Of a DNA stretch of 35,952 nt, positions 7,358 through 11,695 are shown piece by piece; position 1 is the stretch's first letter; the number at the start of each line of letters is the position of its first letter. The position numbers were made by a program, and so were the translations under genes. Source of the DNA: Selenomonadaceae bacterium (GTDB lineage Bacteria; Bacillota; Negativicutes; Selenomonadales; Selenomonadaceae); contig JAFPVP010000018.1 in the NCBI GenBank assembly GCA_017412925.1, forward strand, positions 1 to 35,952, written 5' to 3'. The notes under the pieces were generated by a model. That model worked only from the letters and a program-made list of their open reading frames with translations, made no database searches and had not been told where the DNA came from.

Positions 7358-7948
7358 ATGGAGCAAATTTCGCAGTTTTTTTTAAGTTTTATTGATTCTT
7401 GGGGCTATTTTGCCGTCGCAATCCTTATGGCAATGGAAAATGCGTGTATTCCAGTGCCGAGTGAGCTAATTTTGGGCTTCGCGGGCTATTTAGTCAGCGC
7501 GGAACGCATGACTTTTACCGGAGCGATGATTGCGGGCATGATCGGCGGCATGATCGGCTCAATTTTTGCTTATTTCGTCGGCGCGACCGGCGGAAGGAAG
7601 TTTGTCGACAAATACGGCAAATATTTCTTTATTAAAAAGTCTCACGTCGATTTGGCGCAGAAATGGTTCGATAAATACGGAATTCGAGCCGTTTTTTTCA
7701 GCAGAATGCTGCCCGTTATCCGAACTTTTATATCATTACCCGCCGGTTTCGCCCGCGTGAACTTTAAACAGTTCCTTTTTTACACTTTTGCCGGCTCATT
7801 GCCCTGGACTGCCCTAATTTTGTGGGCGGGAATCATGCTCGGCGATAATTGGGAATATCTTTTGGAAATCGGGCACGAATTCAGCTTGCTTTTCGTGATT
7901 GTGAGCGTTCTGATAATCGCTTGGCTCTATTTCAGAAGAAAAAAATAA
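7358..7948 (+). CDS. DedA-family membrane protein
   Basis: A 196-residue integral membrane protein of the DedA/VTT family, which includes undecaprenyl-phosphate and lipid flippases. Visible marks are the N-terminal amphipathic segment, the re-entrant region around ENACIPVPSE (27-36), the glycine-rich segment GMIGGMIGS, and the conserved FFSRMLPVIRTFISLPAG loop with its two arginines. A C-terminal membrane helix ends in RRKK, a cytoplasmic anchor. It is 3 bases after trpB and ends at a strong terminator, so the two are probably co-transcribed. Substrate is not predictable. Confidence 0.9.
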   Translation: MEQISQFFLSFIDSWGYFAVAILMAMENACIPVPSELILGFAGYLVSAERMTFTGAMIAGMIGGMIGSIFAYFVGATGGRKFVDKYGKYFFIKKSHVDLAQKWFDKYGIRAVFFSRMLPVIRTFISLPAGFARVNFKQFLFYTFAGSLPWTALILWAGIMLGDNWEYLLEIGHEFSLLFVIVSVLIIAWLYFRRKK

Positions 7949-7955
7949 AAATTTC

Positions 7956-7987
7956 ACCCTTCGGCGCGTGTCGGAGGGTTTTTTTTT
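7956..7987 (+). terminator. Rho-independent terminator after dedA
   Basis: ACCCTTCGGC pairs with GTCGGAGGGT, followed by nine T. It belongs to a set of four closely similar terminators in this window (also 10596, 11107 and 11661). Confidence 0.9.
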
Positions 7988-7989
7988 AT

Positions 7990-8795
7990 GCCCAAATGGA
8001 AAATTGCATTTAAACGCAATTTTTCAATCCCAATCTCAAAATCACCCTAAATTTAGGGGGTTTTTTTTACCCCACGAAAAATCCGCATTAGAACGCCATT
8101 TTTTAGACCTGAAAATTGCATTTATTTGCAATTTCTCGTTTGACCCTAAAAACCGCCTCTCCAAACAGGTTTCGAGGCTCAAAATCGGTGCCGCATTGAA
8201 ATTTTCAGCCCGAAACGCCGTTTTTCAAGCCCTGAAAATTGCATTTATTTGCAATTTCTCGTTTGACCCTAAAAACCGCCTCTCCAAACAGGTTTCGAGG
8301 CTCAAAATCGGTGTCGGCTTGAAATTTTCTGCTCGCGACGCCATTTTTCAGCCCCTGAAAATTGCATTTATTTGCAATTTCTCGTTCGTGCCCCAGAATC
8401 GCCACGCAAAGCCATGTTTCGACGCTTCAAAAGCTGTTTCGACGCTTAAAAACGCCGATGTGCGGACTTTTTTGTCTGCCACAATGGAAAATTGCATTTA
8501 AACGCAATTTTTCAACCCAAACCCCAAAATCACTCAAAAAACAGGCGTTTTTTTCGCCACACGGAAAATCCGCGCCATTACGCCATTTTTCAGCCTTGAA
8601 AATTGCATTTATTTGCAATTTCTCGTTCCGACCCTCTCAAACCCCAAATCCGAGGCTCAAAAGCCGTGCCGCATTGAAATTTTCAGCCCCAAATGCCGTT
8701 TTTCAGCCCCTGAAAATTGCATTTATTTGCAATTTCCCGTTTGCCCTTCCAAACCACCCAAAAATCTGCTAAAATCGGTTCAAAATCCGTTTTGA
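7990..8795. repeat. Array of seven hairpin-bearing repeat units, no gene
   Basis: The core GAAAATTGCATTTA recurs at 7999, 8111, 8234, 8357, 8487, 8598 and 8712, with spacings of 112, 123, 123, 130, 111 and 114. Each core is a hairpin. Type A (7999, 8487) has arms AAAATTGC/GCAATTTT around ATTTAAAC. Type B (the other five) has arms AAATTGCA/TGCAATTT around TTTATT and is preceded by a second hairpin such as TTTTCAGCCCCTGAAAA. The order is A-B-B-B-A-B-B, a higher-order repeat. Units starting at 8111 and 8234 are nearly identical for about 75 bases (including AACAGGTTTCGAGGCTCAAA). Open frames here are low-complexity reads of the repeats, not genes. The array ends about 100 bases before a RepL-like gene. 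Confidence 0.9.
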
Positions 8796-8899
8796 AGGGC
8801 ATTTCGGCTGATGAAACCCTCTCCGAACTGAAAATCTCCGCCAATTTGCCCTAAATCGTCCGTCTGAAGATGTTTTTCGCCTTTGAAAGGAGTTTTATC

Positions 8900-9295
8900 A
8901 TGATTTTTCGTGAAGAAGACCTGCTCAACAAGATTATTGCCGCTCCAAACGGCTCCGAACTCAAAATTTTCGTCTATATCGCACTGAAACAGCCCGCGGA
9001 AGGCATTTTGGGCTTTGAAACCACTAAAGAACAGCTCGCTATCGACTTAAACTTGAAAATTAGGACTGTTTTTACCGCTTTGCACTGGTTGAAGAATAAT
9101 TTGCTCATTCAAGAGCTGAAATTGTTCGATACTGTCGATTTTATGGTGAATCCGCGCTTCGTTATGAATAATTCCGACTATCAAGACCGTTTGAACGAGT
9201 GGAATCGCCGTTGCCGCCTCGATATTGCCCGCGAAATTCGTATTAAGAAAGAAAAACGCCGTCGCGAGCTTAAAATTGCTAAAAAAAATGCTTGA
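8900..9295 (+). CDS. RepL-like winged-helix protein
   Basis: A 131-residue basic protein with a winged helix-turn-helix at about 45-105: TTKEQLAIDLNLKIRTV (helices 2-3) then ALHWLKNNLLIQ and a wing ending FMVNPRFVMNNSD. This arrangement, with NPxFVMNN after the wing, resembles RepL-type replication/maintenance proteins of Firmicute plasmids. The C-terminal 35 residues are a lysine/arginine-rich helix suited to nucleic-acid binding. AAAGGAG (8886-8892) fixes the start at 8900. A seven-unit hairpin array lies directly upstream, as iterons do in replicons, which could be its binding sites. Whether it initiates replication or is a domesticated regulator cannot be told from sequence. Confidence 0.6.
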   Translation: MIFREEDLLNKIIAAPNGSELKIFVYIALKQPAEGILGFETTKEQLAIDLNLKIRTVFTALHWLKNNLLIQELKLFDTVDFMVNPRFVMNNSDYQDRLNEWNRRCRLDIAREIRIKKEKRRRELKIAKKNA

Positions 9296-9319
9296 CAGCC
9301 CGTTTTTTTTTTTTATAAT
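9292..9319 (+). promoter_or_regulatory. Consensus promoter with a T12 tract in the spacer
   Basis: TTGACA (9292-9297) and TATAAT (9314-9319) are both perfect, with 16 bases between. Twelve consecutive T (9303-9314) run through most of the spacer into the -10 box. The promoter overlaps the last codons of the RepL-like gene. Confidence 0.75.
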
Positions 9320-9325
9320 GCTTCC

Positions 9326-9401
9326 GCCAATATTCCAGTATAAAACCAACTGTCTGATGAAAAAAATCCCGTCTAAAGTACGTAAGCGGCGGGATTTTTT
9401 C
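9326..9401 (+). ncRNA. Possible short orphan transcript
   Basis: Between the consensus promoter and a terminator only about 76 bases would be transcribed. They contain no convincing gene; an ATG at 9358 opens a 31-codon frame that runs through both terminators. The product could be a small RNA, or the promoter could simply be insulated by the terminator. No RNA family is recognised. Confidence 0.3.
9364..9401 (+). terminator. Rho-independent terminator
   Basis: ATCCCGTC pairs with GGCGGGAT (one G-T pair) around a 14-base loop, followed by TTTTTTCGTTT. Confidence 0.75.
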
Positions 9402-9412
9402 GTTTATGACAT

Positions 9413-9442
9413 AAAAAAACGCCCCGACATGTCGTCAGGGCT
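9413..9442 (-). terminator. Terminator of the minus-strand DUF operon
   Basis: On the minus strand GCCCTGAC pairs with GTCGGGGC and is followed by seven T. It sits just past the stop at 9449. Confidence 0.75.
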
Positions 9443-9448
9443 TAATTT

Positions 9449-9691
9449 TTAGCTCAAATCAAGGTATTTCGTCGTTGTATTGCGTTTGATCGCCTTATTT
9501 ATCCTCCGAAAGTCCGAAGAGTCGCGGTCGCCGATAATTATGTTCTCTTCCTGCATGAAAGTTTCCAAATTTTGAATATCAGAAGCCGAAACATCACTGC
9601 GCGGGCTCCTTAACGTAATTGTGCGCGTGTCTCCGTCCAAAAATGAGCATTCAATACTTAAAACAGACGCCATTTTAACTATATCAGCCAT
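9449..9691 (-). CDS. Small conserved protein, DUF2922-like
   Basis: An 80-residue protein with the pattern of DUF2922: an N-terminal strand with a hydrophobic alternation, LRSPRSDVSASDIQNLETFM as the conserved centre, then a charged C-terminus (INKAIKRNTTTKYLDLS). It is the third and last gene of a three-gene minus-strand operon; its start overlaps the preceding stop by a base. No signal peptide or catalytic motif is visible. Members of this family occur in Firmicutes next to DUF1659 genes and have no established function. The assignment is by resemblance only. Confidence 0.6.
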   Translation of the reverse strand: MADIVKMASVLSIECSFLDGDTRTITLRSPRSDVSASDIQNLETFMQEENIIIGDRDSSDFRRINKAIKRNTTTKYLDLS

Positions 9692-9876
9692 TATACCACG
9701 CTCTCTTTCGTGATTTTAGTCGTTTTGTCGTAAATTTCGTCCGTTAATGCTACTAACATTTGCGCGAACTGCCGCAATTTGTCGTTTGTAGCCTCAGGAT
9801 TTACATAAATTATGTTTGTCGTCTTTTTTTTGCCGTTATCTTCCGTAATTATCTCGATACTCGTCAATTTAGCCAC
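9691..9876 (-). CDS. Small conserved protein, DUF1659-like
   Basis: A 61-residue protein. The segment VNPEATNDKLRQFAQMLVALTDEIYDKTTKI matches the usual look of DUF1659 (strand, then a helix containing QFAQxLxALT, then a polar tail with K-T). It is the middle gene of the operon and overlaps the preceding gene by 8 bases and the following one by one base, implying coupled translation. No function is known for the family. Confidence 0.6.
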   Translation of the reverse strand: MAKLTSIEIITEDNGKKKTTNIIYVNPEATNDKLRQFAQMLVALTDEIYDKTTKITKESVV

Positions 9877-10123
9877 TATAAATAACCTCCTCCTCGATAA
9901 TTACGATTTTTGCGCCGTCAATCCGAGTAAATGGCGCGCCATCTGCCGAAACGAACGTTTGATAGAAATATTCGTATTCGTTATTGACATTTTCGTTAAT
10001 CGCAAGGATTTTCGACTTGACATTGGACAAATCTGCTGCCGCAACGCCCTCCAAAGTGTAATTCCGCGTGGTTTCGTCCTCATAAAGCAACGTTAAGACG
10101 ACATTATTCGTTTGCGACGACAT
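9869..10123 (-). CDS. Small conserved protein, DUF2922-like, first gene of operon
   Basis: An 84-residue acidic protein. NNVVLTLLYEDETTRNYTL, then LSNVKSKILAINENV, and DGAKIVIIEEEVIYSG at the end match the strand-helix-strand layout of DUF2922, where the closing strand reads A-x-I-V. A Shine-Dalgarno-like AAGGACGGTG precedes the ATG. It heads three minus-strand genes that diverge from the double-glycine peptide genes starting at 10266; the 142 bases between hold both control regions. Confidence 0.6.
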   Translation of the reverse strand: MSSQTNNVVLTLLYEDETTRNYTLEGVAAADLSNVKSKILAINENVNNEYEYFYQTFVSADGAPFTRIDGAKIVIIEEEVIYSG

Positions 10124-10207
10124 TTTGATGCACCGTCCTTACTGCTTGATTGGGATCATACTGATTTTGAAAGTTTATAATGCCCAAAAGCTGATTAATT
10201 CCGCCGA

Positions 10208-10257
10208 GTAACAAAATCGGATTTCCAACGTATAAGCAGTATAAAACGATTTGGAGG
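10208..10257 (+). promoter_or_regulatory. Duplicated upstream region, copy 1
   Basis: These 50 bases recur at 10658-10707 with 46 identities and end at the GGAGG ribosome-binding site in both. GTAACA (10208-10213) and TATAAG (10231-10236) are 17 bases apart and could be the -35 and -10. Since the copies lie in front of otherwise different genes, the block is likely a transferable promoter/leader. Confidence 0.6.
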
Positions 10258-10265
10258 TAGATAAT

Positions 10266-10559
10266 ATGGCTGAAAAGAACAAATTCGCGGACGAAATGCT
10301 CACCGATGACGAACTCGACAACATTTTTGGCGGCTCAAACGGTTATGTTTATTATGCTCGCGTAGAAAGACCCGGCATTGACGGCTACTATCTTGTATTC
10401 AGCGAAAAACCTATGTTGAAGGAAGAAGTAAGATTTTGTGTGTACACTACACCGCATATCATTTCCCCATTTATCGACTATAAAGACAAAGCCAAATTTT
10501 TGGATATAGCAAAAGCTAAAGGTTATGAAGCTATCGATTACGACAAGATGAAGAATTAA
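10266..10559 (+). CDS. Double-glycine leader peptide, bacteriocin-like precursor
   Basis: A 97-residue small protein with a 23-residue leader MAEKNKFADEMLTDDELDNIFGG ending in Gly-Gly (written in parts: MAEKNKFADEM, then LTDDELDNIFGG). The LTDDELDxxxGG pattern is that of Nif11/bacteriocin-type leaders recognised by C39-peptidase ABC exporters. The cargo (about 74 residues, starting SNGYVYYARVERPG) has one cysteine and no recognised fold. The ATG is chosen because GGAGG lies at 10253-10257. No exporter or modification enzyme is in the window. It shares its upstream region, but not its cargo, with the next gene. Confidence 0.65.
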   Translation: MAEKNKFADEMLTDDELDNIFGGSNGYVYYARVERPGIDGYYLVFSEKPMLKEEVRFCVYTTPHIISPFIDYKDKAKFLDIAKAKGYEAIDYDKMKN

Positions 10560-10595
10560 AAAATGCGGCGGACGGTCGAAATCTATGATAGAAAG

Positions 10596-10624
10596 CCCTT
10601 CGGCAACGTGTTGGAGGGTTTTTT
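10596..10624 (+). terminator. Rho-independent terminator
   Basis: CCCTTCGGCAAC pairs imperfectly with GTTGGAGGG and is followed by six T. Same family as the terminators at 7956, 11107 and 11661. Confidence 0.85.
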
Positions 10625-10657
10625 CGTTAACGGAGGCAAATTTTTCTGCTAAATTGC

Positions 10658-10707
10658 GTAACAAAATCATATTTCCAACGTATAAGCAGTATAAAATGCT
10701 TTGGAGG
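10658..10707 (+). promoter_or_regulatory. Duplicated upstream region, copy 2
   Basis: Second copy of the 50-base block at 10208-10257, again with GTAACA and TATAAG 17 bases apart and ending in GGAGG. The four mismatches lie at two positions after ACAAAATC and in the bases just before TTTGGAGG. Confidence 0.6.
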
Positions 10708-10716
10708 TTGATAAAA

Positions 10717-11070
10717 ATGGCAAAACGCGAAGAAAACATGAAAAAAATCAACGCGGAACTCGAATTGATGAGCGATGAGGAACTCGAAAGCGTTGCTGGC
10801 GGAACAATCGGTCAAACTGCCGGAGATAGCAAGATTCTTTACGATTATGGGCTTATGGATAAATATTACGGCACGATACCTGTAATGTTCTATTGGAATT
10901 CGAAAAGCGCGGAAGTTGATGCAGGTTGGTCGAAAGCCGGCATTACTTGCGTAACGAAACCTTTCGGTTCTAACCAATATTTCCTCAACGACAAGGAAAT
11001 TTCGCGCGGAGAGGCTTATGATCACTTGAAAGCGAATTTTAAAAGGATTCATCAAATCAGCGAAGATTAA
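10717..11070 (+). CDS. Double-glycine leader peptide, second precursor
   Basis: A 117-residue protein with a leader of about 29 residues ending LMSDEELESVAGG, again the E-L-x-x-V-x-G-G type. The cargo (about 88 residues from TIGQTAGDSKIL) is rich in Tyr, Trp and Lys, has one cysteine (ITCVTKP), and is not obviously related to the cargo of the gene at 10266. GGAGG at 10703-10707 sets the start; a longer frame from 10585 would pass through the preceding terminator. With no exporter nearby, processing would rely on genes outside this window. A secreted antimicrobial or signalling peptide is inference. Confidence 0.65.
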   Translation: MAKREENMKKINAELELMSDEELESVAGGTIGQTAGDSKILYDYGLMDKYYGTIPVMFYWNSKSAEVDAGWSKAGITCVTKPFGSNQYFLNDKEISRGEAYDHLKANFKRIHQISED

Positions 11071-11106
11071 TTTTGCTTAAAAAAGCGTCTCGACAGCAAA
11101 AAAAAG

Positions 11107-11135
11107 CCCTTCGGCGGTTTGTCGGAGGGTTTTTT
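11107..11135 (+). terminator. Rho-independent terminator
   Basis: CCCTTCGGC pairs with GTCGGAGGG (internal T-G mismatch as in its relatives), followed by six T. Confidence 0.88.
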
Positions 11136-11137
11136 CG

Positions 11138-11166
11138 TTGACTTTGTTAAAAAATTTTGCTAAAAT
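11138..11166 (+). promoter_or_regulatory. Promoter of the toxin-antitoxin pair
   Basis: TTGACT (11138-11143) and TAAAAT (11161-11166) are separated by 17 bases, immediately after the preceding terminator. Confidence 0.65.
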
Positions 11167-11183
11167 TTATTCGAGGTGAGAAG

Positions 11184-11486
11184 ATGGACGTAAATTTTGA
11201 ACTCGGAGATTTGAAATTTGTTTGGGATAGTAATAAAAACGAACTAAATTGGCGAAAACATAGAGTAAGATTTGAAGATGCGGCGCGAATTTTCCTTGAT
11301 GAATACAGATACGATGACTTTGATGAGCTTCACAGTAATTTTGAAGACAGAATTAAGACTGTAGGCTTTGTTAGAAACGTTTTGGCGGTAATTTATACCG
11401 AACGAGGAGACAGAACAAGAATTATTTCGGCGCGTCGTGCTGATAGAGATGAGGAGGCTGAGTATTTTGGACAATTCAAGCAATAA
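11184..11486 (+). CDS. brnT: BrnT-family toxin
   Basis: A 100-residue BrnT/DUF497 ribonuclease toxin. Family marks are KFVWDSNKNELNWRKH near the start (W-D-x-x-K-x-x-x-N-x-x-K-H), FEDAARIF, a central acidic stretch ending EDRIKTVGF, and AVIYTERGDRTRIISARRA at the end. In the family the toxin cleaves RNA and is neutralised by BrnA, which also represses the operon. GAGGTGAG precedes the ATG by 5 bases. The downstream antitoxin gene overlaps its end by 20 bases. Length is typical. Confidence 0.85.
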   Translation: MDVNFELGDLKFVWDSNKNELNWRKHRVRFEDAARIFLDEYRYDDFDELHSNFEDRIKTVGFVRNVLAVIYTERGDRTRIISARRADRDEEAEYFGQFKQ

Positions 11487-11655
11487 AAACATTCCGCCGC
11501 TCACTAAAGAGCAAATTTGGAGACTTTATCAACTTTCAAAGATGTCTGATGATGAAATTGATTACAGCGACATTCCGAAAATTACAAAAGAAGAATGGAA
11601 CGAAAAATTTAAACCTTCGCGCCTTCGTAAACAAAAACAAAACATTGCAAGTTAA
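11467..11655 (+). CDS. brnA: BrnA-like antitoxin
   Basis: A 62-residue protein from a TTG start that has GAGGAGG (11451-11457) at good spacing; an ATG at 11449 would place the start inside that site. SDDEIDYSDIPKITKEEW is the BrnA signature that contacts the toxin. The family's C-terminal ribbon-helix-helix DNA-binding part seems reduced to a basic tail (KPSRLRKQKQ), so autorepression may be weaker or use another factor. It overlaps brnT by 20 bases. Confidence 0.75.
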   Translation: MDNSSNKNIPPLTKEQIWRLYQLSKMSDDEIDYSDIPKITKEEWNEKFKPSRLRKQKQNIAS

Positions 11656-11694
11656 AAAAAAGCCCTTCGGCGCACGGTCGGAGGGTTTTTTTTA
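11654..11694. terminator. Bidirectional terminator between brnA and prepilin peptidase
   Basis: CCCTTCGGC pairs with GTCGGAGGG, with eight T to the right and an A-run to the left, serving the convergent genes on both sides. Confidence 0.85.
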
Positions 11695-11695
11695 G

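What the first reader, a model, noticed from the sequence alone, without database searches (positions are those of the whole stretch)
7990..8795. Seven-unit hairpin array with A-B-B-B-A-B-B order beside a RepL-like gene
About 800 bases without a gene contain seven regularly spaced (111-130 bp) copies of a 22-24-base palindromic core, in two arm/loop variants, with a second hairpin in front of each B unit. Base changes in arms keep pairing (TGCA against GC with a shifted loop), suggesting the structure matters. It ends next to a winged-helix protein of plasmid-replication type, as iterons would, but the spacing is far longer than classic iterons. Possibilities: an origin or partition site of an integrated replicon, an operator array, or a structured RNA.
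Basis: partly seen in the sequence, partly recalled or inferred. Interest (0 to 1): 0.68.

Follow-up and report, generated by a model that had tools for sequence, protein, structure and literature searches.

The report
Dispersed paired binding sites with matching regulator
In a rumen bacterium (Quinella group), a row of seven palindromes beside a small DNA-binding gene turns out to be the largest copy of a repeated element scattered through the genome, and the palindrome's sequence changes in step with one amino acid of the protein that most likely binds it.

Summary
In detail: seven palindromes in A-B-B-B-A-B-B order, spaced 111-130 bp, far beyond chance. The reading as an iteron origin is not supported. 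The array is an expanded copy of a dispersed intergenic element: palindrome A, a terminator-like hairpin, a conserved GCG..CGC motif, palindrome B, then degenerate 20-nt repeats. About 20 or more loci carry it in this genome. Of 66 genus genomes, 24 have it. Most copies have no neighbouring gene.

The neighbouring 131-aa winged-helix (wH) protein is a multi-copy, genus-restricted family (21/66 genus genomes, 0/123 others of the family; no Pfam match). In 20 of 26 inspected wH genes, palindrome B ends 32-34 nt before a -10 box. Palindromes co-vary with the wH recognition helix: residue 54 Lys goes with TTCC..GGAA (8/8), Arg with GGAT (14/15). Palindrome arms show no G.U excess, which suggests DNA dyads rather than RNA hairpins.

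At orthologous sites the element can be absent, present, or swapped for another core type. Best reading: operators of a diversifying wH regulator family, spread as REPIN-like elements. Binding, autoregulation and the spreading mechanism are inferred. Closest known: REPIN-RAYT, but no transposase was found.

The parts
7956..7987 (+). intrinsic terminator of dedA; the array starts 12 nt after its T-run
   Evidence: stem of 10 pairs; similar spacing at many other loci
8000..8023 (.). palindrome A1 (AAAATTGCATTTAAACGCAATTTT)
8044..8074 (+). T1: terminator-like CCCTAAATTTAGGGGGTTTTTTTTACCCC
   Evidence: the motif recurs between A and B in relatives
8083..8103 (.). G1: conserved CCGC..ACGCCATTTTT motif
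   Evidence: CGC..CGC columns invariant or nearly so in 17 elements
8112..8135 (.). palindrome B1
   Evidence: element A1-T1-G1-B1 scores 163 bits with model R1 (this element is in the training set)
8235..8258 (.). palindrome B2 (123-bp tandem duplicate unit)
8358..8381 (.). palindrome B3
8488..8511 (.). palindrome A2, start of a second A-T-G-B element (138 bits; in the training set)
8524..8558 (+). T2: region with the GGCG-T7-CGCC variant of the T hairpin
   Evidence: sequence
8570..8590 (.). G2: CCGCGCCATTACGCCATTTTT
   Evidence: sequence
8599..8622 (.). palindrome B4
8713..8736 (.). palindrome B5, promoter-proximal site, 33 nt before the -10 box
8767..8775 (+). putative extended -10 element TGCTAAAAT of the wH gene
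   Evidence: same spacing from B in 20 of 26 wH genes; not seen by the generic promoter scan
8900..9295 (+). wH gene, 131 aa: winged helix plus a 37-residue basic C-terminal helix; RBS GAAAGGAG; predicted recognition helix residues 54-66, with residues 54-55 = Ile-Arg
   Evidence: AlphaFold pLDDT 92; relatives; co-variation

Best explanation
The seven palindromes are binding sites (DNA dyads) for the wH protein encoded next to them. The array is a tandemly expanded copy of a dispersed element made of operator A, a terminator-like hairpin, a conserved GCG..CGC motif, operator B, often degenerate 20-nt repeats and, beside wH genes, a promoter. In front of wH genes, operator B sits at a fixed distance (dyad centre about 57 bp before the presumed start site) from an extended -10 promoter that lacks a clear -35. 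A wH dimer bound there, probably helped by further sites upstream, most likely regulates its own gene. The genus carries several wH paralogues per genome, each with its own palindrome sequence, and specificity is set largely by residues at the start of the recognition helix (around 53-56). Gene-less copies of the A-to-B element with matching palindromes are scattered through the same genomes, often just after a gene's stop codon or terminator, and behave like non-autonomous repeats. Shown here by computation: the element anatomy, dispersal, filled and empty sites, swaps between core types, the protein-palindrome co-variation and the fixed promoter spacing. Inferred: physical binding, dimerisation, autoregulation and its sign, and any role of the wH protein in the spread.
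For: Co-variation: of all 9-residue windows of the protein, the five best correlated with palindrome similarity all lie in residues 50-62, around the predicted recognition helix (partial r up to 0.41; recognition-helix windows 0/2000 permutations). Residue 54 Lys goes with GGAA in 8/8, Arg with non-GGAA in 15/15 and with GGAT in 14 of them (Fisher p 2e-6; 4 of 4 independent contrasts on a tree built without the helix agree, though four pairs alone give only p 0.125). Geometry: B ends 32-34 nt before the -10 in 20 of 26 wH genes, while 0 of 78 gene-less copies have an extended -10 at 31-36 nt. DNA rather than RNA: arm changes are mostly two-sided, with G.T 8 against A.C 31. A and B of one element resemble each other (0/2000 permutations). 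Gene-less palindromes match the wH-linked ones of their own genome best (rank 1 of 720 genome-label permutations). wH genes and elements occur in the same genomes (18/3/6/39, p 2e-8, not corrected for phylogeny). Filled and empty sites: ylqF, mnmA; L237; core type swapped at the same site with near-identical flanks. A terminator lies just upstream of A in 44 of 96 elements against 5.6% of background windows. Fold.
Against: No binding or expression data exist. Which palindrome counts as a gene's own was chosen by hand as the one nearest the start codon, before the residue-54 pattern was noticed; one gene (C205) was entered with its distal palindrome because its proximal ones look acquired, and with the proximal ones it would be an Arg case with neither core. 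In G053 the gene-less palindromes do not match its only intact wH gene. Gene-less copies lack the promoter geometry, so the autoregulation model does not explain what they do. Six genomes have elements but no detected wH gene (incomplete assemblies, 59-82%).
Confidence: 0.75

Rival explanations
1. The elements are plain REPIN/MITE-like mobile repeats moved by some host or IS transposase. The wH gene is cargo, and its link with the palindromes is a by-product of shared descent.
For: Near-identical copies at unrelated loci in G000; empty and filled orthologous sites; preferred position after terminators; most copies lack the gene.
Against: Shared descent does not explain why co-variation peaks in the recognition helix after correcting for the rest of the protein, or the repeated Lys/Arg-GGAA/GGAT switches, or the constant B-to-(-10) spacing.
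Confidence: 0.15
2. Replication origin or partition site of an integrated plasmid, with the wH protein as a RepL/DnaD-like initiator and the palindromes as iterons.
For: Winged-helix fold; weak PHROG matches to a replication initiation protein (E 7e-4) and a DnaD-like helicase loader; repeats beside the gene.
Against: Sites scattered at about 20 chromosomal loci, mostly without the gene; no relatives in plasmids, phages or viral contigs; spacing of 111-130 bp; promoter-locked geometry; no RepL match in Pfam.
Confidence: 0.05
3. Structured RNA: the hairpins act in transcripts (leader, 3' end or small RNA).
For: Conserved pairing with many two-sided changes; position after stop codons and terminators.
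Against: No G.U excess on the + strand (8 G.T, 31 A.C); in wH genes palindrome B lies upstream of the presumed promoter; no Rfam match.
Confidence: 0.05
4. Mobile promoters: the whole module with promoter and RBS is copied in front of host genes and puts them under wH control. This would extend the best explanation rather than exclude it.
For: mnmA in G005 and G021 carries the same TTATAATCACTCGCGGAGGTG promoter and RBS as wH genes such as L057; at L237 the filled site gains the element and a promoter between two formerly adjoining genes; most downstream genes in G000 are co-oriented.
Against: 0 of 78 gene-less copies keep the 32-34 nt spacing; some copies lie between convergent genes or upstream of a host gene's own promoter.
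Confidence: 0.25

Closest known systems
REPIN-RAYT system (REP doublets and REP-associated tyrosine transposases; PMC3116915)
   Same: Pairs of palindromes dispersed in intergenic space; several sequence groups per genome, each with copies beside its own protein gene; co-evolution of protein and palindrome proposed; some tandem arrays.
   Different: The protein here is a winged helix plus a helix, with no Y1/HUH transposase match; the element is about 135-155 bp and one class has a terminator-like hairpin between the palindromes; the protein genes are themselves present in several diverged copies.
BOX elements of Streptococcus pneumoniae (PMC3049150)
   Same: Modular intergenic repeats with variable numbers of an inner module in tandem; hairpin-forming.
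   Different: BOX is not known to me to have a cognate DNA-binding protein gene; the module order differs and no sequence similarity was looked for.
Autoregulated paralogous repressor/activator-operator pairs (divergence of duplicated repressor-operator pairs; PMC1464816)
   Same: Paralogous DNA-binding proteins with private palindromic operators, switched by recognition-helix residues.
   Different: Operators here are embedded in a dispersed repeat present at many gene-less loci and exchanged between types at fixed sites.
RepL-type plasmid replication proteins and iterons
   Same: Small winged-helix protein with repeats next to its gene (resemblance from general knowledge).
   Different: No profile match; dispersed chromosomal sites; no plasmid relatives.

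Membership tests
REPIN-RAYT | dispersed intergenic paired palindromes | tested here: met
REPIN-RAYT | associated Y1/HUH tyrosine transposase | tested here: not met
   wH protein: winged-helix model; no transposase family in Pfam, NCBIfam or PHROGs. Other genes of the genome were not screened.
REPIN-RAYT | palindrome group specific to the neighbouring protein gene | tested here: met
RepL plasmid replication protein | RepL profile match (Pfam PF05732) | tested here: not met
   no RepL hit at E<=10 for any of 23 members
RepL plasmid replication protein | occurrence on plasmids | tested here: not met
   no match in 72,556 plasmid records
Iteron array | short (about 20 bp) direct repeats confined to one origin next to rep | tested here: not met
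   units of 111-130 bp, dispersed over the genome
MITE | target site duplication | tested here: inconclusive
   one clean empty/filled pair (ylqF) allows a 3-bp GCG duplication, not reproduced elsewhere
MITE | terminal inverted repeats shared with an IS transposon | not tested
   IS ends of the genome were not examined
Autoregulated wH transcription factor | binds palindromes upstream of its own promoter and alters transcription | not testable with these tools
   only indirect: fixed spacing and co-variation

The most novel reading that the evidence does not exclude
A selfish operator-regulator system: a DNA-binding protein without a catalytic domain drives, through its paired dyads, the copying or overwriting of its own recognition element at many chromosomal sites. 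New specificities would replace older ones site by site, as the swaps of core type at near-identical flanks suggest.
Probability: 0.2. Interest if true: 0.88.

Novelty: new variant of a known kind. Interest (0 to 1): 0.66.

Why it matters
The genus offers a natural experiment in how a DNA-binding protein and its site change together. Some thirty paralogue-palindrome pairs were read here, and one residue (Lys/Arg 54) tracks one base pair across independent lineages. The same palindromes mark a dispersed repeat family with empty, filled and type-swapped sites in close relatives, so the question of how REPIN-like repeats spread without an obvious transposase becomes testable. No profile database searched here describes the protein or the element.

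Tried and rejected
RepL/iteron origin: rejected. Structured RNA: Rfam gave only tRNAs and the L10 leader, and the G.U test is negative. Coding sequence: long open frames cross the array (7968-8501, 8362-8772), and in C205 and C58 such a frame runs into the next gene. Rejected because unit steps are not all multiples of three and the downstream genes have their own RBS; no formal coding test was run. Mobile promoter as the general explanation: weakened. Solved-structure search by sequence: nothing. Foldseek: only generic ArsR/SmtB-type winged helices, best E 7e-4. Quinella repeat literature: nothing relevant; 'putative mobile promoters': no paper held.

Full report
What is there. The window carries seven 24-bp palindromes between dedA (7358-7948) and a 131-codon winged-helix (wH) gene (8900-9295). 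The array starts 12 nt after dedA's terminator. Its last palindrome ends 33 nt before TGCTAAAAT (8767-8775), a plausible extended -10 box for the wH gene.

It is a dispersed element. The exact B core occurs at five loci of this genome, only two of them beside a wH gene. Comparison with relatives shows a constant order with changing palindromes: A, a CCCC..GGGG-T hairpin in one class, a CCGCATNANNACGCCATTTTT motif, B, and often degenerate 20-nt repeats. A covariance model of 17 such elements finds about 20 or more loci in this genome and elements in 24 of 66 genus genomes, up to about 40 matches per genome (overlapping and reverse-strand matches inflate these raw counts, and the training elements match by construction). 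Related records are titled Quinella, Selenomonadaceae or Selenomonadales; several name ruminant hosts. The window's array reads as two elements joined, because the sequence before and around A2 resembles that of locus C134, plus amplification of 123-bp B units. It is the largest array seen.

The protein. AlphaFold gives a confident winged helix followed by a 37-residue basic helix (pLDDT 92). Foldseek matches are generic. The family was found only in this genus: 21 of 66 genus genomes and none of 123 others of the family, with 1-5 copies per genome and several broken copies. There is no relative in plasmids, phages or viral contigs. Genomes with the protein and genomes with the element coincide (18 both, 3 protein only, 6 element only, 39 neither), although relatedness of the genomes is not corrected for.

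Protein and palindrome change together. For 28 wH genes I took the palindrome nearest the start codon (the distal one for C205, see below). Similarity of palindromes correlates best with similarity of residues 50-62, around the predicted recognition helix, after correction for the rest of the protein (five best of all windows; 0 of 2000 permutations). Residue 54 Lys goes with TTCC..GGAA in 8 of 8. Arg goes with GGAT in 14 of 15, and Ile (with residue 55 Arg or Pro) with TTGC or TTATC cores. The Lys/Arg difference arose several times: four independent contrasts all agree. An orthologous pair shows it directly. At L235/L339 the flanks and palindrome A are alike, while palindrome B changes from ATCC..GGAT to TTCC..GGAA and the helix from SRTKFFN to GKTVFFD. 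C205 is a caution: its protein has Arg54 and its distal palindrome has an ATCC core, but its proximal ones are TTGCA, seemingly acquired from a C58-like array.

DNA, not RNA, and linked to the promoter. Arm changes are mostly two-sided, and mismatches are not biased to G.U on the + strand. In 20 of 26 wH genes B ends 32-34 nt before the -10 box; most of the others have extra sequence, mainly 20-nt repeats, in between. This fixed phase suggests that the bound protein acts at the promoter. None of 78 gene-less copies has an extended -10 at that distance, so they are not simply transplanted wH promoters, although mnmA in G005 and G021 does carry the same promoter and RBS.

Movement. The ylqF site is empty in G002 and G023 and filled in this genome. 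mnmA sites are empty in five genomes and filled in G000, G053, G005 and G021 with different cores. In G021 against G005 and G002, with upstream flanks mostly 95-100% identical, sites are filled in one and empty in another (L237), or hold a different core type at the same place (L234, L236, L238, L239, and single palindromes at L241, L244, L246, L250). Elements sit close behind a terminator T-run at many loci, most often 5-12 nt, or directly at a stop codon. The enzyme responsible, the exact right end and any target duplication remain unknown. Ectopic gene conversion, repeated insertion at preferred sites and exchange between strains could each produce the swaps.

How it works, most likely. A wH dimer binds its dyads in front of its own gene and regulates it; the extra dyads of the window array would raise local occupancy. 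Whether the wH protein also promotes the spread of the element is open. Membership in REPIN-RAYT is not claimed, because no transposase was found. In what it works like, REPIN-RAYT is the nearest system: there too, each palindrome group lies beside its own protein gene (PMC3116915).

Noticed in passing
window 9290-9404: Directly after the wH stop codon lies a perfect TTGACA-16-TATAAT promoter whose spacer is mostly a run of T, followed about 50 nt later by a strong terminator: a possible small RNA with a slippage-prone promoter. Similar T-spacer promoters are seen near L032, L035 and L230; only one exact copy of the pattern in this genome.
   Followed up: partly
window 7949-11695: dedA is closely followed by a prepilin peptidase (A24) gene in G005, G036, G055, G057 and G056, whereas this genome has 3.7 kb of extra genes there: a variable island after dedA. 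In G002 and G025 a second partial copy of the dedA 3' end lies at the far side of the insert.
   Followed up: partly
L099:1667-1887 and many gene-less loci: Degenerate 20-nt tandem repeats (CTCAAAAATCCGTTTCGAG, up to 11 copies) follow palindrome B; the unit holds an imperfect dyad TTTCGAGGCTCAAA.
   Followed up: partly
L024:778-1453, L021:241-1586, L042: Numerous small genes with Nif11-like leader peptides (..DDELDQVAGG..) near wH genes and elements look like a further dispersed cassette family.
   Followed up: no
L150, L163, L214, L218: Other genus genomes carry different short repeats in similar intergenic places (AGTGGTTAGTGATTAGT.., AATTGGGAATTTGGAATTAGG.., GCCAGCTGCTAGCTG..).
   Followed up: no
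L093 (C111), after the element: The promoter and the first few dozen codons of mnmA are duplicated in tandem.
   Followed up: no
L100 / G000:C130: A further wH-type element whose wH gene is cut after about 10 codons next to a transposase-like gene.
   Followed up: no
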